Assembly (NCBI GenBank): GCA_002803225.1
Contig: NXFV01000286.1
Location: 31,145 to 95,144, forward strand
Length of the DNA: 64,000 bases
Direction: 5' to 3'
Origin: Gamarada debralockiae
Taxonomy: Eukaryota; Ascomycota; Leotiomycetes; Helotiales; Hyphodiscaceae
Part shown: in pieces, positions 19,986 to 63,254 of the stretch
Numbering within the stretch: position 1 is the stretch's first letter
Layout: each line of letters starts with the position of its first letter
The notes under the pieces: generated by a model
Database searches by the model: none
Seen by the model: the letters and a program-made list of their open reading frames with translations, nothing else
What the model was told of the DNA's origin: nothing
Translations under genes and position numbers: made by a program

Positions 19986-20964
19986 GACGTGACAAACAAG
20001 CATGGGATAGAGCACGTTCCTGAACCCCCGCATATTGAACAGGGCCAGCCCAGCTACCTGTTACTCTGCCCGTTGTATCTACCGGTGCAGGAAACGGGAT
20101 TCGAGATTGCCTTCCAGGTTGCGCTTGGTCCCATTGTCTTATTTCCTCCTTCTACCATGCGATGTGATGCTTTTGGACTTCTGTGGTTGCACAGATACCC
20201 AAGACCATTCCTTTTTTACCCTCGTGTTGTTCTCTAGAATTTGGAATTGACTAATGATTTGAGAAATCATTTGTGACCCCAATAAAAGTAGGAGCTGTAT
20301 GCCGACCTCCCTGCCCCTCTTCCCGTAGGCCTGGATTTTGATTGAGGTGCCTGCCCCTTAGGTGCATACGTTTCTGTTACAGAAGACACCATAAAGTAAA
20401 ACATGGTATTTGGTCCGCACCATTATGGATTCACATGTTCCAAGAGTTGCAGAATAGATTGGATTTTTTGGGTAGCTATTCAGAGCTCGTAGTATATAAT
20501 AGATGCGTTTCCAATACCCCAATTGTTCAGAACAAACAAGCGAACATATAAGCCTTCTTAGATATATTAGACTATAGCTATACACTAAGCTCTAGTTTTA
20601 GGTATAGCTATATTAAATATTTTAAACTATTACTTTAGTTTATAAGTAAGCTTCAAATAAAAGGCCATAGCTAAGGCTACTTTATCTTACTAAGATAAGT
20701 CTCTTTTAATAGCTGTATATATTCACTCCGAGGCCTTCTGTTCCTTAATCATCCATTAGTATAACTATAACCACATTATAACCATTACTCTACGTGATAG
20801 AACCTAATCGAAGGGCTATATATATAGATAAACTAATACTTAAGATAATAAAGAAGGCGTTAATTTTATATAATATTGTTTATATAAATTATTTGATTCT
20901 GATTTAATTAAATCAGATTAACCAAGGTAATTAATCTGATTAATTTGATTAATTTGATTAATAT
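19986..20964. other. AT-rich relic DNA
   Basis: No gene. From about 20550 the sequence becomes strongly AT-rich and TA/TG-skewed, as after repeat-induced point mutation. At 20890-20965 a short tandem of ttaatttga-type units occurs next to the HET relic. Confidence 0.45.
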
Positions 20965-52886: not shown

Positions 52887-54818
52887 ATGCCGTTCCCAAG
52901 GCGAGCTCCCTCGAGAGCATTGCTCACCACTCTTACCAAGACCTCAACATCCACAGCTCCATCCATCCGCGCCACAGCTCCACGACAAACACGATTGGTA
53001 TCTACGGAGCAGAAACCGAGCGATGAGGGACGATCATTCAAAGGGCAGCTATACAACAGTACCGCGGAACGATTGGCGAAGGAACGCGCAGAGCAGCAGA
53101 GGTTTGCGAACGAGAGGAACGAGGGTGCCGGAGGAAGAAATGCGGCGTTGACATTCAGTATGATTAGACCTTCTATCACCCTTCTTCCAATATTGGAAGC
53201 CTAGGTCTAACTTATGTGATTCACAGCTCTCATCGCTACAGCTCTCGTATCTTACTACCTTGGAACCAAAAGCAATGTAGCTCCATCAACAGCCTCCACG
53301 ACTCCTCTTGCCGCGACCAAGCCTCTCAAACATGATATTTCGGGTTCCAATATGGAAGCTGCGTGGGCCGATTTCGTTGAGATAGTGGGCGAGAAAAACG
53401 TCAGTACGCTAGACACAAATCTCGAGCACCACGCAGGCAGCGAATGGTCAACGTACACTACCAAAGATACAGAACGTCCATTCTTAGTTGTGTATCCAGA
53501 AACCACGGAGGAAGTTAGCAAGATCATGAAGGTCTGTCATAGAAGGAAGATACCCGTTACAGGCTACAGTGGGGGAACAAGTCTAGAGGGACATTTCGCG
53601 GCTACAAGGGGAGGAATATGCGTGGACTTTGGAAGAATGGGCAAGATTGTGACGCTACATAAGGAAGATATGGATGTAGTGGTGCAACCAGCTGTGGGAT
53701 GGGAGATGCTGAATGAGGAGCTTGCGAAAGAGAATCTCTTCTTCCCGCCGGATCCTGGACCAGGTGCTATGATTGGGGGTATGGTGGGCACGGGATGCAG
53801 TGGCACGAATGCATACAGATATGGCACCATGCGGGAATGGGTCCTGAGTCTTACGGTCGTGTTGGCGGATGGAACGATCATCAAGACTAGACAACGACCG
53901 AGGAAAAGCAGCGCAGGGTATGATTTGACCAAGATGTTTATTGGGAGTGAAGGCACACTGGGACTGGTTACGGAAGCTACGTTGAAGGTCACTACGAAGC
54001 CAAATACAACCAGTGTGGCAGTATGCTCGTTCGGATCGATCAAGCAGGCTGCGGATTGTGTGGCTAGTGTTGTGAGCAATGGGGTGCCGATCGCGGCAAT
54101 TGAGATTTTGGATGATAATCAAATGTTGTCTATAAATAAGGCTGGCATGACGGAGAAAGCGTGGCATGAGGCTCCAACTTTGTTCTTCAAATTTGCAGGC
54201 ACGCCGAACGCAGTTAAGGAGCAGATTGCTATGGTGCAGAAATTAGCTAAGAGCACTGGGAGCAAGACCTTTGAGTTCGCGAAGAATGCTGCAGAGCAGA
54301 CCGAGCTTTGGAGTGCGAGGAAAGAGGCGCTATGGAGTACGATGGCTATGCGAGAGAATGAGAGTGATCACGTATGGACTGGCGATGTGGCTGTTCCCAT
54401 CAGCCGGCTGCCGGACATCATCAATGAGACGAAGGAGGATCTGAAGAAGAGCGGATTGTTCGCTTCGATTGTAGGCCACGTGGGAGATGGGAATTTCCAT
54501 ACCATACTGTTGTACAATGATAAGCAGCGCAAGCAGGCGGAGGAGTTGGTGCATCGTATGGTGAAGCGCGCGGTGGAGATGGAGGGCACGGTTACGGGTG
54601 AGCATGGGGTGGGGTTGGTGAAGAGGGATTACTTGAATCATGAGTTGGGGGAGACTACAGTTGATGCGATGAGAAAGGTTTGTCTCCCCGAATACTTGAG
54701 TTGATTGCTTGCTGATCATTGGTAGTTGAAACTGGCTTTCGATCCACTGTGTCTTTTGAATTGCGACAAGATCGTTCGAGTTGAGAAGCCGAAGGCTGGT
54801 GAGGTAAGTGAGTGGTAA
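52887..54818 (+). CDS. D-lactate dehydrogenase (cytochrome), mitochondrial
   Basis: FAD flavoprotein that oxidises D-lactate to pyruvate and passes electrons to cytochrome c. Exons 52887-53157, 53227-54677 and 54726-54818 give 604 aa. The N-terminus is a mitochondrial presequence (MPFPRRAPSRALLTTLTKTS), followed by a membrane anchor (FTLIATALVSYYLG) created by the first splice. The FAD-binding PCMH domain shows PVTGYSGGTSLEGHF and PDPGPGAMIGGMVGTGCSGT, and KMFIGSEGTLGLVTEATL; the C-terminal FAD-oxidase domain has ASIVGHVGDGNFHTILL and GTVTGEHGVGLVKRDYL. The last exon encodes the conserved tail LKLAFDPLCLLNCDKI. Likely inner-membrane protein facing the intermembrane space. Confidence 0.93.
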
Positions 54819-54981: not shown

Positions 54982-55400
54982 TCAACCTGCCAAACTCAAT
55001 CGACCGCTTTCCTCGTCCCCTCCCCCATCCTCCGCGATGTCCCATTCAGCATCCCATTCAGCATTCCAACGCCGTCCCCTCAAAATCGATGTCACTGTCG
55101 CAATTATTGCACTTCGAGCCGCTTTCTGGGAACATCTCGATATTCCTGGGCACGGCGCCTTTTCATTTTGCATCGCCAATAACATCAAAGATATAGTTCG
55201 TCCCTCCGTTCCTCCTATGAGGGCACTCCATTCGGCCTCCGTCAACATGTATAGAGTGGGCCTGAAACCGATGAACTGTAGCAATTTGTCAAGTGCACGC
55301 TGTGCCTCCCCACCACATTTTCATGCAGGACTTGGTACAGTCAGATATGGCATTCGGTGGTATTCCAGGTCCATTACGGTATATCTGTCGCTTGGATATA
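54982..55400 (-). pseudogene. Array copy A of an unrecognised protein family
   Basis: Minus frames give HYIQATDIP-stop-WTWN (anchor 55361-55379), then LYQVL, and in another frame LLQFIGFRPTLYMLTEAEWSALIGG followed by LMLLAMQNEKAPCPG. This is the family plan W-(AT)-W, V-W-L-(FY)-K-V-L, F-x-G-C-G-(PT)-T-L-Y, W-x2-L-(VI)-G-G, (M)-R-x-E-(K)-(AG)-(AV). Two stops and at least one frame change. Upstream lies a small (taattgac)3 repeat. Confidence 0.6.
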
Positions 55401-55730
55401 ATGTTCTTCCAGGTCAATTAGTCAATTAGTCAATTAGCGATTCAGATTTCATTTCAGTTGAAGAATCGGAGGGCGTGGTGTATGATGGCTACGTTTCCTC
55501 ACGGGGCTTTGATGCGAGGGGCTTCGATTCTCGGTTGCCCATTCTGGACTTCATGAAATTCGGAAGTGTGAGCAACAAATTTTTGGAAGTTTCCACAGAT
55601 TTTGCCATTCCGTACTAGTCGCTGTTTCAAGCTGGACATAACGCTACTGACATTGACTACGAGGAAAGACCACACTCCCTTAATACAGCACCCCTCTCTC
55701 TTCCTCTCCGCGTAGTCTCCCCCCTCACAT

Positions 55731-56080
55731 CTAATTTCCCTCTGGCCGGCCCTTTCCAGGTGGTATTGAGAACCCAGCTGGTACAGCTCCTTTCTCCTTT
55801 CGCATCACAAACACCATCGAATAGAGTGTTCCTCCGACCAGCGTCCCCAGAAGATCCTCACATTGGAACTTGTCGTAAAGGTAAATTGTTGGTCCACATC
55901 CTTTGAATCTTATCGCAAGTCGGTCAGCACCTTGAAAATCCAGACACGGCATTCGAACCTGGACCATTCCCACTGAGGCACGCTCTTGGCTTGGATGAAA
56001 TGCTTTTGTATGCAGCTATCAGTTGAGAATCCTCTTGCTCTAAGTTATCGGGATTTCCCGCCAAGCATGGTGGAGGACCG
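55731..56080 (-). pseudogene. Array copy B of the unrecognised family
   Basis: Begins with MDGPPPCLAGNPDNLEQ; after a one-base frame change HFIQAKSVPQWEWSRFECRV continues to WIFKVLTDLR and a stop (anchor PQWEWSR at 55957-55977). The second half in another frame is RFKGCGPTIYLYD, LVGGTLYSMVFVMRKEKGAV. Closest in order and spacing to copies A and C. Family unknown to me. Confidence 0.62.
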
Positions 56081-56244
56081 TCCATGAGGGTTGAAGGTTG
56101 AGCGCCCGTTTCCGATTTGTGTGAGATTGGGAAGTGAGAGGAGACTCAATGGTTGGAAGTTTTCCGAATAGTTTGTCTTTTCATTCATGGCTAGTGTCTT
56201 GTATGACCTTCGCGGTCACAGGTACGTAGCGCTACCAAATGTTG

Positions 56245-56600
56245 CTACGAAGGCAAATTCGCCACAGCGGCCTCCTCATGTCGCGCTGCAAACACTCTCC
56301 AATACAGCATCGCTCCTTCCGGTCCTCCGACAAGTGTCTTCCATTGATCCTTTCTCATCACATATAAGGTAGTTCCACAACCTGTAAAGTCGTTCGCCCA
56401 GTGCCCGCTCTTCCTTCCAGTACAGCTCTCAGTCAAGACCTTAAAAAGCCAGACAACGCAGTCTACCCTGGACCAGGCCCATTGAGAGATGCCCTTTACA
56501 TCGACGGGACACCCAGCGATTAAAGCCATCATTTCAGGGTTCGGAGGGGGAGTAAGGCGGGCGGCTTGTCGCCACGGGGCTTTGAGGCCTCGTTGCTATT
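56245..56600 (-). CDS. Array copy C, the best-preserved unit of the unrecognised family
   Basis: A single open frame on minus of 95 codons from ATG 56532, and open further upstream to about 56600 (APWRQAARLTPPPNPEMMAL). Key run: GISQWAWSRVDCVVWLFKVL (anchor 56468-56487), then DFTGCGTTLYVMRKDQWKTL and VGGPEGAMLYWRVFAARHEE. The other copies align with this one block by block. Tryptophan- and cysteine-rich for its size, no signal peptide visible. It may be an exon or a decaying gene; whether it is expressed cannot be judged. Confidence 0.5.
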
Positions 56601-56729
56601 TTGTTCTTCAGGGTCCTTGGTGTTAGCTTGATAGGATATGCCAGGATGGAAGTAATGAGAGAATCATATAACTTGTTGCGATTTGTACTAGCATTTTGCC
56701 TAATCTTCAAAGTCATAGGTAACTCAACG

Positions 56730-57224
56730 CTACCAAACAGGTCACGACCCCAAAAAACACCGTGTTTGCCAACTTTGCCTCCTCCACCTGAGAATGCAAT
56801 TTGACACCTTTTGGCACTGCACCCTTCTCCTCTCTCATAGCAACGAGCACGAAATAAATTGTAGGGCACTCTAATCCTCTAATCAATCTATTCTACTCTA
56901 AAACTCTCATCATCTAAATAGTCGGTCTGAAACTTTTAGATTTGCTTGCACCTTATGTGCCTTCTCCGTCGTCCACCGGCACATGTTCTTCAGTACTTTA
57001 TACAGCCAGATCACGCATTACCAGCGCGCCCAAGCCCATTGCGGTACATCTGTCGCCTCAATAGGGAACGCCTCGACTTGTTTGAGGATTTCAGCTAAAT
57101 ACTCCGCATTATGATCAACGTATGGTGGCGGTAGATCTCTGAAGTATCCTCCTAGTAAGGGGTTGTTGTACATTTTGAACAGCGTGTCAGGATCTGGGAT
57201 TTGGTGTGTATAATGAGAAGACAT
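56730..57224 (-). pseudogene. Array copy D of the unrecognised family (with N-terminus)
   Basis: Starts at ATG 57224 with MSSHYTHQIPDPDTLFKMYN and contains YFRDLPPPYVDHNAEYLAEI and VEAFPIEATDVPQWAWARW (anchor 57021-57041). A TAA follows directly, then the family continues in frame with C-V-I-W-L-Y-K-V-L. Further down, in a shifted frame, PTIYFVLVAMREEKGAVPKG matches the second half of copies A-C, while the segment between is decayed. It supplies the only clear N-terminus of the family. Confidence 0.6.
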
Positions 57225-57317
57225 GGAGGCAGCAAACGTTTGTCTGGCACCTTATCTCTCATATCTCCATCTACACTAGAATTACGAGTAGCCCTAGGAA
57301 GTCAAATAACGAGTCCG

Positions 57318-57545
57318 TCACGCACCCAGGTTCCAAAACCACAGGCCCTCACCTGTCCAGCACGAAGCCATATTCTGCCAGCTCTCCCAAATTTCCGTCC
57401 TCAATCTACTCAGCATGTTCCGAATCTTCGGTCCAGTCGACGTCCCCACCAACTCGCACCATTGGTCGCCTTTAATTGCGTACAACTTTGGTGTAAACTG
57501 ATCAAATCTTAGCACGACGTCTAATATATTGCCAAATATTACCAA
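57318..57545 (-). pseudogene. Array copy E, second half only
   Basis: The open frame on minus has FDQFTPKLYAIKGDQWCELV followed by G-x3-G-P-K-I-R, and SRLRTEIWESW; it aligns with the second half of copy C (F-T-G-C-G-T-T-L-Y, K-D-Q-W-K-T-L-V-G-G, F-A-A-R-H-E-E). The first half is missing; AT-rich DNA with repeated attgcca motifs (57520-57690) takes its place. Confidence 0.5.
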
Positions 57546-57689
57546 TATACAGTGTAGTGCAGTGTATCACTTGGGCTAACCAATATGATATAGTATAGCT
57601 GGGCCCACACTGCAGTGATACTAGCAATCTTTTTATATTGCCAATATACGCACTACTCGCACTACTGGAAACACTGACCTGAATAAACC

Positions 57690-57820
57690 TCCATCGGAGA
57701 TGTTCCCGAGAAATCAAGTCATCGCCTTCCTCGTCAACTCGCCAACGTGCGAGAGCGACAGGCCTCAGTAAAATTGGACGAACCGCAAGAACTACATCTG
57801 GCTGTTCAAAACCTGATAGA
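57690..57820 (+). pseudogene. Array copy on the opposite strand, first half
   Basis: Plus strand reads D-R-P-Q-stop-N-W-T-N-R-K-N-Y-I-W-L-F-K-T-stop at about 57757-57813, matching V-P-Q-W-A-W-S-R-x-E-C-x-V-W-L-F-K-V of copies B-D position by position. Stops flank it, so it is a remnant. Confidence 0.45.
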
Positions 57821-58229
57821 ATACCACCTCGGGGATTAAAAAGATGTGTCGAACGCCGCACTGGGTTTTGATAAGTCTAGACCAGCACTGGATGGTATAA
57901 CTGGGGATCAGTGGTGTGAAAAAGCTGGGAGATGGACTGGACCAAAGAGTAATGCTAGACTGGATATAAGTGATTTGGGAATCTGGGTGGGATTACGTAC
58001 CTTGTGAGGTTGTGACTAGAATCCAAATGTAAGACTAGACCCAAAATACAACCCCTCCAATTCAGTTTCCTGGCCCCACTATCAATCCAAGAAAGCAGTA
58101 TAATGAAATTCAATAGGCTCACATCTCTCAAAATCACGCAGGAGGCATCCAGCCTCTGAAGCTGCACCACCACCGTACTCCTCCATCCTCATAACCCCCG
58201 GCCAACGACTCGCCCAGCTTGAGGACTCC

Positions 58230-58400
58230 AAAAAGCAAATTCCGCAACCAGCCAGGAGACTCACCATTGTCCTATTTCTCGATTCCCACATCAACGTGAA
58301 GGATGTCCCTGAATAAAATTGGACCAAATTCGCTAGCTGTACCTGGTTGTTTAAAGTCCTCACGAAGACTATAAATGGACCAGTACCTTACCCTAGCAGA
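58230..58400 (+). pseudogene. Second opposite-strand array copy, first half
   Basis: Plus strand reads H-I-N-V-K-D-V-P-E-stop-N-W-T-K-F-A-S-C-T-W-L-F-K-V-L-T-K at about 58286-58366. The D-V-P and W-L-F-K-V-L-T blocks are as in copies B-D. The stop sits at the same place as in the copy at 57690-57820, so these two share an ancestor younger than the array. Confidence 0.48.
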
Positions 58401-60659
58401 GGCACGTTCGACAGGCGCCTTCGCATAAACTGCAGCAGACGGCATCGTCACAGAGGCTGAGGTCCGGCTTCTCCTGCGAGAAGAGTTTATAAGGCACTAG
58501 TCATAACAGAGCGCTTACATAACTATTATACTAATTAGTAGTAGTGATTAAGAACACTAGAGATAGCTTTATATTAAATGTAGATCTATATTATACTTAT
58601 AGTTTTAGATAATGCAATTGATACTTAAAGATAGTGGCTAGGAACTAGGTCCTTGCAGCTCGCTATCGCTCGCTGGCGTGGTGCCGGCTGCTATGCGGGC
58701 ATGTGACTTAGGGTGAAGCCTGTAAAGCCTGTAACCACTACCTGTAGGAGCCTGTAAAACCCCTAAAACCTGTAGAATTACCCATAGAACCACCCGCAAG
58801 AAGCCTCGGAAATAATAGTCCTCTGCTACGCTACGGAATTATTGTCTCGGTGCGTGTCCTTTCTTAATAATCATCGTTCTATTGGTAGTCCTCTATATAC
58901 ATTTCCGCCTCTTGGCTGTCTACTGGCCGTAGGCCTGCCCGCTAGCCCTTTCCTCCTGCTCTTGTCACTCTGTCCATCTATCTGACTCCTTTTTTATTTT
59001 CCTACGTTCCCTCTGTTTCTCCTTCCAACTTTCAAGCGCTATCTGTCTCCCTTCTCTCTCTTCTCCCACTACGCCTCAAACTCTTGCTCTAGCTCCCCCT
59101 TTATGCCCGTAGCTGCTTTACCCGCTCCTTATCTTGCTGTCTCTGGACTATCTGCTATTCCTCTACACCTCGCGCCGTTGCTGCGGTTCTTATAACTCGT
59201 GCTCCTCCTGTTGTGTAGGGGAACGGTGCAATCCTCAACCGGAATTGGCTAGTAGCCTACCTACCACCTTTCCGGCTTCCCTGTGGCTTGTTCCCGGCAT
59301 AGGGTATGGATTTGTAGTATAGCCGGATCAGGGAAGGGTCTTTGGACCTATTAAGTCTTATAGCATTGAGCTTTTGCATTTCAGCGGCGGCAGGGCTCAC
59401 AGATAAGAAAGCGGCCGAAGAGAGACGTTTGGCGAAGCTGCGTACAGCCGGAGCAGCTGGTTTGTGTAATAGGAGCACAAGTAGGAGACGTATTTACTGA
59501 GCCAGGGCTCAGCATTTACCGCTGAACAGTACGGAAGCCCCAAAGAGACTAAGAAGGCCCGAACGGATGGGGCCATAAAGTACAAAGTGACCTAGGAGCC
59601 CAGACCTCAGTAGCCTCCAAAGGAATCGGAAAACTGCGATACGAGCTTGCATAAAGCCAGCTGCTAGTATAGCTAGTACAGGGAGCTAGTGACTAGGGAT
59701 AGAGTATAAGTAAGGGCTGTCGACCTTCTTGGAGAAGGGCAAGCTTGAGTTTTTCTTTTACAAGCATACGAGTACTACGGAACCTCTTTTCGACTATCAC
59801 GAATATAACCATCATTGCCTCTTTTCCCCCATTGCTACTTCTCTGATATATTGTACTCCCTCCTGTTGCCCTCTAGTTACCAGTAGCTGTTACACGCTGA
59901 CTATTAATACGGTATGTCTATCTTTTACGTTTATGCAAGATATATTAATATTATGCTTCCTGCCTTGGCAAGACCACCCTGCTAGCGTGGGCAATAGCTC
60001 CCAGACGAGGGGATAAGAGCCGTGGTTACGTTCGGGTTTTGACGTAAGTTTTGGTGTTTCCGGATTAATATTGCAACTCTGTATATGAAACACTGTAAAC
60101 CTTATCGCCCATCCTTTATCTTGTTACTCTCCCCCTAGATGAATGTTAAATTTTTGGCGAGTGGCACAGCCAAAAATTTAACCTTCATTCCCCGGGGAGG
60201 GGGTGAGTACTGTACCACTACTGTACTGTAATGAACCCTCGCTAGCGCCATCGGCGACGTCCTACTTTATCTCTCCATCTCTCGGTCTTATGCCTATTTG
60301 CTAGTGGCACCCCATGCCCATTTACCAGCTGGTCTGCGCTGCGAAGGCTATGGCAGACCCCTGTCAGGGGCTTGTGTCCTCTTGCGCACCGACGTATCCA
60401 CTCAAAAAAGAATGCATGAAGATCGTATCTTATTAGCCTTTGAAATACGACCTAGGCATAAATATTTTTAAGTTGGAAAAGTATCACCACAACCTTTAGC
60501 TCTTAGGGAGATAATGATGAGGGAAGCTGCCCGGAAGCAGAATCCAAATACACTCGGGCCGGACAACATTCGATCGAGCAAGCTTCACACGAGAAAGAAT
60601 AAGTAGAACAGTTCTGTATCAACGACATCTTTTCTTTCCAATCACTTATAGCCTTCAAA
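58401..60659. other. Repeat-rich region without a supported gene
   Basis: AT-rich at 58500-58650, then a segment (58900-59720) whose minus strand reads as a basic, charged protein with stops (for example RQQDKERVKQLRA), suggestive of the C-terminal part of a DDE-type transposase but not provable here. At 58720-58790 a cctgtaaaac-type short repeat occurs several times. A strong stem-loop lies at 60141-60190. Confidence 0.35.
60141..60190. repeat. Long stem-loop
   Basis: Arms 60146-60158 and 60169-60181 are exact complements (ttaaatttttggc), extended by gaatg/cattc after a two-base bulge; loop of 10. Outside it, C-rich and G-rich runs (ctcccccta and ccggggaggggg) can extend the pairing imperfectly. 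Confidence 0.7.
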
Positions 60660-63254
60660 ATGCAAGTTCCAAAGCACTTTTTTACCTTTGTTCTGCTTGC
60701 TCTGTGGGTCCCCCAAGCTATCACAGCTCCCACTAGCAATAGCACATCGCCTTCGTTGAATGGTACATCAACATCAACGCATTTGAAAAGCTCTACTATG
60801 TGGTCAAACTCCTCATCTATTGCTTCATCGATATCCTCGAATAGCTCTTCCACAATTCTACATACACCATCGATTACATCACCACCAACAACAACTCCAG
60901 CAAAGCCTCCTACAACTAGCTCTAGTGCTACTTCCACTACTACAATCAGCGGTGGCGCAATTGTTACGCTTCTGCCTGGTGTTGTAGCTTTCGGAGGACC
61001 AGGTGGCGGTACAGTGGTTATTGGTGGAGTTCCCACTGCGATTGTCGCCGGTCAGACTATTACAGGCCAGGAAAATCATCAGAGTGCTCCAACTGCAACC
61101 AGGCCGTCAACGTCAAGTCACGCCCCAAGTTCCTCTTCCTCATCTTCTAGCTCAACCACCTCTTCCGCTGCACCCAATGCAACCCCCAATCTAATTTTCC
61201 CTGTTGATGGCGCCTCCACAGCCGAACAAGCCAGTTTCTTGTCCTTTCTAGATCAGCAGCTTGGGGGACCTTCAACTTATATGGTTTCCCAAATCACAGG
61301 ACTTGGAGTACAATTCGTCTTTGCCAACATAACGACAACACAAGCGACTGCTATTTCCGCTAATAAGCTGGTACGTGTCTCTTTTAACAAGATACTTGGA
61401 TTATGACTATTACTAATAAAGCTTAGGTTAGTGCAGTGATTCTCAATGTGGACAGTTCCCAAGATTTCGGTGCAATCAATCCTGGAGTCGCACGCCGAGA
61501 CTTCGCCAACGGAGTAGATGAAGTCGAAGAGAAGATAAAAGGGCGAGCTACAATGCACCAGGCAAATGCAAAACCCGAATTGAAGGTTGTATCACAGCCT
61601 CCTGGCACTGCACTCAACGCTATGACAAGCTATGCGTATGATTCTAGTTCAGGGTTTGACGTGACAGTCTATGTTGTGGACTCAGGTTTCTACACACGTA
61701 GCCCTGTATGTGCAAATATGAGACTCCTCAAACTGATGACAAGACTGATCCAAGTTCTAGGAATACAAAGGCATGAAGGGAGCTGCGCCACGCTGGTTAT
61801 TTGGTGGGAATCAAAAGCATAACCAAAAGAAGGAGGATATAGATATAGAAGGTCACGGGTCATGTGTGGGCTCAAAAGTCAATGGTCCTAATTATGGTGT
61901 TACTAAAATGGCAAATTTGGTTATTGTAAAGTCAGCACCAATCGCTTACGACACCCTTGACGGGCTGGCGCAGGTTTATGATGATATTATCAATAACAAC
62001 CTGGAGGGGAAGGCGATTATTGTCCTTTCACGCGGGTGTAAGTAATGATGCTCAGAGATTGACAGTCCTTTGGAGTACTCTGCTAACCTCTTATATAGTT
62101 GATCTTAACTCCCCAGAAACGCCGGCCATTATGAAACAGTTTTCCTTTTACTTGCGTGAGTTTACGCGTTTGGATGTTGTGTTCATTGCAGCATCGGGTA
62201 ATGATGATAATCAAGTAGGGTGTCTGCCTAATATTTGAACTGGTGTTTAAAGCTAAATTTCAATACTAGGTTGGAACAGCTCCAGCTAAGGATATAGACC
62301 ACATTCCGCAGGTGTTGGCATCATCTTTCCCGATTATCAATGTCGGCGCAGTCGACAACAACGGTGTCAACGCCACATTTTCACAAGGAGGACCCTTGGT
62401 CCACGTGATGGCACCAGGAGTAGATATAAGTTGTGCGAGCAATAGCTTTTTTACTAACACTAACGTATATGACGGAACGTCTTTCGGTATGTACTAGTAC
62501 TAAACTTCCAGCCTATCACAGTGACAAGCTTGACGCTGATCCGTATCACATAGCTGCACCTGCGGTTGCTGGACTAGCCGCGTATCTCTTAGCCCTTGGA
62601 GAATACCCGCAATTATACGCCAAGGGAAAGGTTGCACAAAATATGAAGGATCTGATCATGAGCATGGCATACCCTAGAGTATCTGACGGCATGCCAGTCA
62701 TCTTCAATGGTCAGGGAGCGTCATGCTCTAGACTACTAGGCGCAAAATTCAGACGGCAAGCAGGAGGCAAGGCCTGTTCTGCTTCAAGCTCTGCGTCATC
62801 AACAACTGCCGCGGTAACATTAACATCGTCAACTGCACCACAGACTACGTCTATTTCATCTTCCAGTCCAACTACGACATCGGCTACCACTACGACATCG
62901 GCAGTGGTCAGTTCGGAGCAGAAGTGTCCTGGCGACCTCAACCAATCCTGTGCCGCGAGCACTGACGGTGTACATCGATGCCTTGTTGTGTAGGAAGACC
63001 CCTCTCAACCCCTCTGCTCTAGTACTAACAAATAATAGGGGTGGTGCTAATGTCTGTGTCATCGATTGTGAATCTCAGACGGCCTGCCGGGCGTCGTGTG
63101 TCAATGCCGGCTTCATTAATGGCTTCTGTACTACTGGGTATATCTTCAGCTCCTCTTCTCTTGTATCACAAGGCTAGCTCAAGAACTGGCTGACTTTTGT
63201 TATAGTAACAACCCTTGTGTCTGCACCAATAGCGACGCTAGTGGCAGCTCGTAG
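60660..63254 (+). CDS. Secreted subtilisin-like serine protease (S8) with Ser/Thr-rich linkers and Cys-rich tail
   Basis: Eight exons: 60660-61370, 61427-61705, 61761-62037, 62099-62214, 62270-62486, 62554-62989, 63039-63137 and 63206-63254; 727 aa, all introns GT-AG and all phases consistent. Signal peptide [20 protein letters not shown], cleaved near ITA-P. A 150-residue Ser/Thr/Pro region with a Gly/Val patch follows, then the peptidase: Asp in VYVVDSG (about 321), His in EGHGSCVGS (about 361), and Ser in GTSF-AAP (about 531), where the splice joins F to AAP; oxyanion Asn region ASGND. The C-terminus has another Ser/Thr linker and about ten cysteines in 70 residues, possibly a binding module. 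The catalytic set is complete. Confidence 0.88.

What the first reader, a model, noticed from the sequence alone, without database searches (positions are those of the whole stretch)
54982..58400. Degenerate array of an unrecognised Trp/Cys-rich protein family
Four same-strand copies (A-D) carry the anchor P-Q-W-x-W at about 55370, 55968, 56478 and 57031, spacing 598, 510 and 553 bp, and each is followed about 190-220 bp later by the same second block (F-x-G-C-G-x-T-L-Y ... R-x-E-K-G-A-V). A fifth half-copy and two opposite-strand half-copies extend it to 58.4 kb. The conservation is at protein level across copies that have diverged in DNA, so the family was under selection before it decayed. 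I know no named domain with this block order. Copy C is still open. It could be a local expansion of a fast-evolving, possibly lineage-specific gene.
Basis: seen in the sequence. Interest (0 to 1): 0.78.

Follow-up and report, generated by a model that had tools for sequence, protein, structure and literature searches.

The report
Dead cluster of fungal SAM-like genes
This stretch of a fungal genome is a small graveyard of broken, duplicated copies of an unnamed gene whose intact relatives encode a short protein that is predicted to fold like the common SAM interaction module and to carry a docking motif for WW domains.

Summary
Profiles built only from sequences outside the window find block 1 of copies A-D (16-30 bits) and block 2 of A-C and F (10-36 bits); the best score in 60 shuffled windows was 9.2. 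The array holds at least seven copies: A-D and F on the minus strand, G and H on the plus strand. All are truncated, frame-broken or stop-bearing except C, which is open but lacks the N-terminal motif.

Damaged copies lie on four other contigs, with a weak fifth, and environmental assemblies hold relatives, one of them (P0001, 160 aa) intact. No Pfam or NCBIfam model reached its cut-off.

Best reading: decayed duplicates of a small intracellular adaptor gene. The fold is a prediction and the adaptor role inferred. RIP does not explain the decay. The family has no name in the libraries searched; the kind of module is known.

The parts
55320..55403 (-). copy A, block 1 (P-stop-W-T-W .. C .. L-Y-Q-V-L; two in-frame stops)
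   Evidence: profile from outside the window 27.0 bits; translation; stops counted
55147..55293 (-). copy A, block 2 (FIGFRPTLY...W..LIGG), in another frame than its block 1
   Evidence: 29.2 bits; pairwise
55919..56002 (-). copy B, block 1 (VPQWEWSRFECRVWIFKVL)
   Evidence: 30.0 bits; genome-wide E 8.3e-5 to copy C
55764..55940 (-). copy B, block 2 (FKGCGPTIY...MRKEKGAVP), another frame than its block 1
   Evidence: 31.9 bits; genome-wide E 3.8e-5 to C32
56065..56076 (-). copy B, possible remnant of the PPxY motif (PPPC)
   Evidence: translation only; weak
56248..56595 (-). copy C, both blocks in one open frame of 116 codons; ATG-to-stop ORF 56532-56245 (95 aa); PPPN in place of PPxY
   Evidence: block 1 16.3 bits, block 2 36.0 bits
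57021..57224 (-). copy D, N-terminal half with Met start, LPPPY and the PQWAW anchor, ended by a stop
   Evidence: block 1 29.7 bits; PPxY shared with C673 and C891
56913..57017 (-). copy D, rest of block 1 after the stop (CVIWLYKVLKN...)
56797..56931 (-). copy D, degenerate block 2 (..GLECPTIYFVLVAMREEKGAVPKG)
   Evidence: pairwise with C32, part of E 6.5e-14; only 2.8 bits in the independent profile
57393..57518 (-). copy F, block 2 only (FTPKLYAIKGDQWCELVG)
   Evidence: 10.3 bits; E 2.6e-5 to copy A in the window set
57763..57810 (+). copy G, block 1 (PQ-stop-NW...YIWLFK)
   Evidence: 2.3 bits, within noise alone; right place and order before G block 2; shares its PQ/PE-stop-NW form with H
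57843..58013 (+). copy G, block 2 (GDQWCEKAGRWTGPK)
   Evidence: E 6.4e-6 genome-wide to F
58290..58379 (+). copy H, block 1 only (VPE-stop-NW..CTWLFKVL)
   Evidence: E 4.6e-4 to C in the window set; 3.6 bits, within noise alone
57536..57677 (.). A+T-rich, partly self-complementary dispersed element lying between copies F and G
   Evidence: second copy at C290:2137-2277, 69% identity, E 4.0e-6; hairpin z -1.97, 9 of 200 shuffles fold as well

Best explanation
The array is a cluster of decayed duplicates of a small protein-coding gene (about 160 codons when intact) in a fungus. The protein has a low-complexity N-terminus with a PPxY motif and a C-terminal, all-helical SAM/Pointed-like domain: block 1 is its first helix (W-x-W....C..W-L), block 2 the middle turn and the long last helix (F-x-G-x-G..(I/L)Y....W..L-x-G.....(I/L)Y...). 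Shown: homology of the copies, further copies elsewhere in the genome, an intact environmental relative, the conserved PPxY, broken frames, no RIP signature over the array as a whole. Predicted: the SAM-like fold. Inferred: the protein works as an intracellular adaptor. The PPxY would dock on WW domains, most likely those of the Rsp5/Nedd4-type ubiquitin ligase, while the SAM-like domain would bind a partner or self-associate. The gene duplicated head-to-tail and in inverted orientation, copies diverged as proteins under constraint, and this cluster then lost function by ordinary stops and frame breaks, with one repeat insertion. My shares: decayed family 0.93, SAM-like fold 0.85, WW/SAM adaptor role 0.35.
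Confidence: 0.72

Rival explanations
1. Copy C is still a working, shortened gene: a 95-aa SAM-like protein without PPxY, kept while its neighbours died, perhaps as a free domain that competes with the full-length protein.
For: Both blocks in one open frame of 116 codons with the signature residues kept. Its homologous frame has the best codon score of six, 0.10, against 0.31 for the neighbouring FAD-linked oxidase gene, which was itself in the training set.
Against: Some frame this long occurs in 159 of 300 shuffles of the array. The PPxY Tyr is absent, no Met precedes the PPPN stretch in the open frame, and block 1 scores lowest of the four (16.3 bits). The codon score is well under that of the live gene.
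Confidence: 0.12
2. The array was one long gene for a protein with repeated SAM-like domains, not a row of small genes.
For: The spacing of about 510-600 bp leaves only some 30-120 bp between 160-codon units; four copies on one strand.
Against: Copy D has its own Met start with a stop upstream in frame. PPP remnants recur upstream of B and C. Copies G and H face the other way. C673 and C891 look like single-domain genes with a Met start and P0001 is a single-domain protein.
Confidence: 0.06
3. The blocks are remnants of a mobile element's protein (for example a Gag-like protein; PPxY is also a late-domain motif of retroviral Gag, recalled).
For: Dispersed broken copies on several contigs; a PPxY motif; a dispersed repeat next to copy F; a DDE-transposase-like sequence near C581, by eye.
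Against: No reverse transcriptase, integrase or transposase among the 18 neighbouring ORFs scanned (a part of the flanking ORFs). DNA identity between copies is 35-62% in the 35 pairs compared, so there is no recent burst. The fold matches SAM. The C891 copy has a probable intron.
Confidence: 0.04
4. The decay was caused by repeat-induced point mutation (RIP) acting on the duplicates.
For: Several stops stand where the family has Gln or Trp (A, G, H). The right half of the array (56600-58400) leans mildly that way: 0.88 and 1.18.
Against: Indices of the whole array are ordinary: TpA/ApT 0.74 and (CpA+TpG)/(ApC+GpT) 1.24, against tile means of 0.73 and 1.28 for the window (array tiles included). 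The left half, which holds copies A, B and C, has 0.57 and 1.32.
Confidence: 0.05

Closest known systems
Pointed/ETS-type SAM domains (TEL/ETV6, Yan, Mae, ERG, FLI1)
   Different: Sequence identity 8-16% in those rows. No SAM model among Pfam hits for P0001-P0004 and ten other family pieces. Here the domain sits in a small PPxY protein without an ETS domain.
Fungal SAM adaptor Ste50 (and its partner Ste11)
   Different: Ste50 also has a Ras-association domain (PMC4824985, passage). P0001 is too short for one and carries PPxY instead.
Rsp5 adaptors with PPxY (alpha-arrestins such as Rod1/Art4, Rog3/Art7)
   Same: A PPxY motif outside the folded domain, the established WW-domain ligand (PMC4824985, passage).
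   Different: The folded part is a predicted SAM-like bundle, not an arrestin fold. Binding to Rsp5 is not tested.
Unnamed environmental proteins P0001-P0004
   Same: Same family: PPxY (P0001-P0003), block 1 (P0001-P0003), block 2 (P0001, P0003, P0004), same order.
   Different: P0001 is intact over its length. It is closest to the C891 copy (77% identity over its N-terminal piece), not to the array copies.

Membership tests
SAM / Pointed domain superfamily | Five-helix bundle with a long C-terminal helix | tested here: met
   Predicted only: P0001 model helices 72-85, 91-99, a three-residue turn 108-110, 113-120 and 122-139, with another three-residue turn at 67-69; VIA-align Z to 9.5, 37 of rows 1-43 named SAM, PNT or TEL, then unrelated at 4.5.
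SAM / Pointed domain superfamily | Match to a curated SAM sequence model | tested here: not met
   No SAM family among Pfam hits at E up to 10 for 14 queries; HMMER filters drop most weak hits. I therefore call it SAM-like, not a filed SAM member.
SAM / Pointed domain superfamily | Homo- or hetero-association through mid-loop and end-helix faces, or RNA binding | not testable with these tools
   Needs purified protein.
PPxY/WW adaptor of Rsp5 (Nedd4-type) ligase | Conserved PPxY in an unstructured part | tested here: met
   6 of 6 sequences that keep the N-terminus; residues 1-60 of P0001 at pLDDT block means 51-72 without helices. Copies B and C have PPPC and PPPN; none was recognised in A and C32.
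PPxY/WW adaptor of Rsp5 (Nedd4-type) ligase | Binding to WW domains and recruitment of the ligase | not testable with these tools
   Needs a binding assay.
Transposon or retroelement protein | Linked polymerase/integrase/transposase or match to a transposon protein model | tested here: inconclusive
   Pfam found none in the family pieces or in 18 neighbouring ORFs scanned, but not every neighbouring ORF was scanned and a DDE-transposase-like sequence is seen by eye near C581.
RIP-mutated repeat | TpA/ApT raised and (CpA+TpG)/(ApC+GpT) lowered | tested here: not met
   Whole array 0.74 and 1.24 against tile means 0.73 and 1.28; left half 0.57 and 1.32, right half 0.88 and 1.18.

The most novel reading that the evidence does not exclude
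An unnamed, fast-turning-over family of small fungal SAM-PPxY adaptors exists whose members are repeatedly duplicated and lost between lineages. Each would couple a different SAM partner to a WW-domain ubiquitin ligase, so that the cluster in this window is the wreck of a former local set of specificities.
Probability: 0.2. Interest if true: 0.6.

Novelty: new variant of a known kind. Interest (0 to 1): 0.36.

Why it matters
It turns an anonymous, apparently lineage-specific 'orphan' array into members of a recognisable kind: a SAM-like module that the sequence models searched here miss, in a small protein with a WW-docking motif. If the adaptor reading holds, fungi have a class of ubiquitin-ligase adaptors built on SAM rather than arrestin folds, and a family whose turnover can be followed between species. 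The array itself appears to be dead DNA.

Tried and rejected
Led nowhere: Pfam on 4, 3, 10 and 4 family sequences and NCBIfam on 5 gave no family at its cut-off; the weak Pfam hits (PGAP2IP 0.072, TraN 0.22, Fungal_trans 0.22, PRIMA1 1.4, Mito_fiss_reg 1.6) are far below theirs and I take them for chance. The PDB sequence search gave 0 hits with alignment A2 and one antibody hit at E 1.1 with A6. The first two protein-database searches found nothing: copy C alone and alignment A1 (267 candidates). Only the third, with the two paralogues that keep the N-terminus, found relatives (4 of 279 candidates), so the earlier blanks did not show absence. In one search, two of the eight query pieces (D2, D3) were cut in the wrong frame by my mistake and are ignored.

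Literature: searches returned no paper; 72 (2 papers), 73 (10 of 89 listed) and 76 (1) listed none whose title or shown abstract describes such a family. I saw listings only, except passages of PMC4824985. Subscription papers and preprints are not in the library.

Rejected: RIP as the cause of decay. A shared neighbour as a hint of function: the flanks differ among the 18 ORFs scanned (FAD-linked oxidase, Clr5-type gene and GH64 in the window; CAP/Srv2 near C32; sugar transporter and carboxylesterase near C1038; HET domain near C581; nothing in the one ORF scanned near C891 or the two near C673).

Hits dropped: C511 (E 0.085) and C696 (E 0.11) (C696 was read on one strand only, not that of the hit); C238 (E 0.18), 6 of 17 hits are family (C32, C72 twice, C673, C891, C1038) and 11 were dropped, two after reading (C526, C852) and nine unread, against 4 for the reversed control pattern, 5 of 6 hits are family and C885 was read and dropped (control 3). 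Most of the 66 hits (control 17) were not read, so the number of genome copies is a lower bound. A block 1, G and H were left out of the structure alignments because of their stops or weak match.

Not tested: expression; sister species (the tool holds no relatives of this genome); the DNA around P0001-P0004 (no scan of metagenome contigs was allowed); how many fungal proteins the protein database holds. The organism's name is unknown.

Full report
WHAT IS THERE. The window lies on contig C72 (31145-95144) of a 54.3-Mb genome in 1112 contigs with no relatives in the tool. Between an FAD-linked oxidase gene (53352-54704 and on) and about 58.4 kb lie repeated remnants of one protein family. Six-frame translation shows anchors with TGGnnnTGG at 55373, 55972, 56481 and 57038 on the minus strand. 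Copies B and D read P-Q-W-x-W, A has a stop for Gln, and C has S-Q-W. A second block (F-x-G-C/F-G..(L/I)-Y....W..L-x-G, ending near R-x-E-K-G-A-V) begins 65-107 bp later and ends 190-223 bp later. Block 2 only is left of copy F (57518-57393). On the plus strand lie copy G (57763-58013, both blocks) and copy H (58290-58379, block 1).

CHANCE. Profiles made only from sequences outside the window (7 rows per block: environmental relatives and paralogues on other contigs) were run over all six frames of the window with stops as X. Block 1 finds B, D, A and C at 30.0, 29.7, 27.0 and 16.3 bits, the next hit being 4.1 at an unrelated place. Block 2 finds C, B, A and F at 36.0, 31.9, 29.2 and 10.3, then D at 2.8 and unrelated places from 1.3 down. 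In 60 dinucleotide-preserving shuffles the best score was 9.2 and 8.4 bits. F stands little above that ceiling but also has E 2.6e-5 to copy A in the window set. D block 2, G block 1 and H are not above noise in this test and rest on pairwise matches and on order.

A FAMILY, NOT A LOCAL ODDITY. Genome searches gave further loci. C32:36398-36748 has both blocks in one frame with two TGA stops. C673:53674-54122 has a Met start, LPPPY, block 1, and block 2 in another frame. C891 has a Met start, APPPYSG, block 1, a probable GT-AG intron, and block 2 split between frames. C1038:7326 has both patterns 103 bp apart, in different frames. C581 is weak: E 0.004, with two stops. So each of the four firm loci outside the array looks damaged. 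DNA identity is 35-62% over aligned codons in the 35 of 36 copy pairs that share 20 codons or more, so the duplications are old. Within the array B and C are locally closest (75% over 68 bp). The list of loci is a lower bound (most of the 66 anchor matches were not read).

INTACT RELATIVES. A profile of C673 and C891 found four environmental proteins: P0001 (160 aa, E 2.6e-38), P0002 (93 aa), P0003 (128 aa) and P0004 (96 aa). P0001 spans N-terminus, PPPY, block 1, block 2 and tail without a break. P0002 ends, and P0004 begins, at about the place of the probable intron of C891; P0001 is continuous there, which suggests that it came from a spliced transcript (inference). Pfam and NCBIfam gave no family at its cut-off.

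HOW IT MOST LIKELY WORKED. Shown: conserved PPxY, a coding signature, broken frames. Predicted: SAM-like fold. Inferred: an intracellular adaptor. In yeast, PPxY motifs of alpha-arrestins recruit the Rsp5 ligase through its WW domains, and Ste50 and Ste11 are joined through SAM domains (PMC4824985, passages seen). A small protein with both parts would link a SAM partner, or a self-assembled polymer, to a WW protein. I give this about 0.35.

HOW IT DIED. RIP indices of the array are ordinary as a whole, 0.74 and 1.24, with the right half (0.88, 1.18) leaning mildly towards RIP and the left half (0.57, 1.32) away from it. An A+T-rich dispersed element (57536-57677; second copy on C290) sits between F and G, where the missing block 1 of F would be expected. 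Copy C is open for 116 codons, but some frame as long occurs in 159 of 300 shuffles of the array. Its codon score is 0.10 against 0.31 for the oxidase gene, which was in the training set; over eight family pieces the homologous frame scores best in five. A working copy C is possible but not indicated.

VERDICT. A real observation, largely right in kind: a decayed cluster of an unnamed fungal family that is predicted to be SAM-like. Moderately interesting for the family, low for the array itself.

Noticed in passing
57536-57677: A+T-rich element with partly self-complementary sequence and the repeated word ATATTGCCAATATA; a second copy lies on C290:2137-2277 (69% identity, E 4.0e-6), with further inverted matches of the word beside it. 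It may be a MITE-like element.
   Followed up: partly
L034 / L067 (C891) and P0002, P0004: The C891 copy has a probable GT-AG intron between blocks 1 and 2, and P0002 ends and P0004 begins at about that place, whereas copy C and C32 run from block 1 to block 2 without one: two gene structures within the family.
   Followed up: partly
L010:1-330 (C32, upstream of the paralogue): Open frame with LLVIIDGFEVLD, looking like a NACHT/STAND ATPase piece (by eye). Pfam gave no family for the long frame there.
   Followed up: partly
L036:1051-1350 (C581): DDE-transposase-like sequence (..PYSLNFNPIEEFFNDLK..) ending about 0.15 kb before the weak paralogue (by eye), with a HET-domain ORF further upstream (L069:632-1444).
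   Followed up: no
62433-62993: Frame with HIAAPAVAGLAAYLLALGEYP, looking like the end of a subtilisin-like protease (by eye). Pfam gave no hit for this ORF alone.
   Followed up: partly
56101-62900: Three of the window's four 3.4-kb tiles with TpA/ApT above 1.0 start at 56101, 57801 and 59501 (1.06, 1.19, 1.01; the fourth starts at 20401), so A+T-rich repeats or mild RIP may lie at and right of the array's right end.
   Followed up: no
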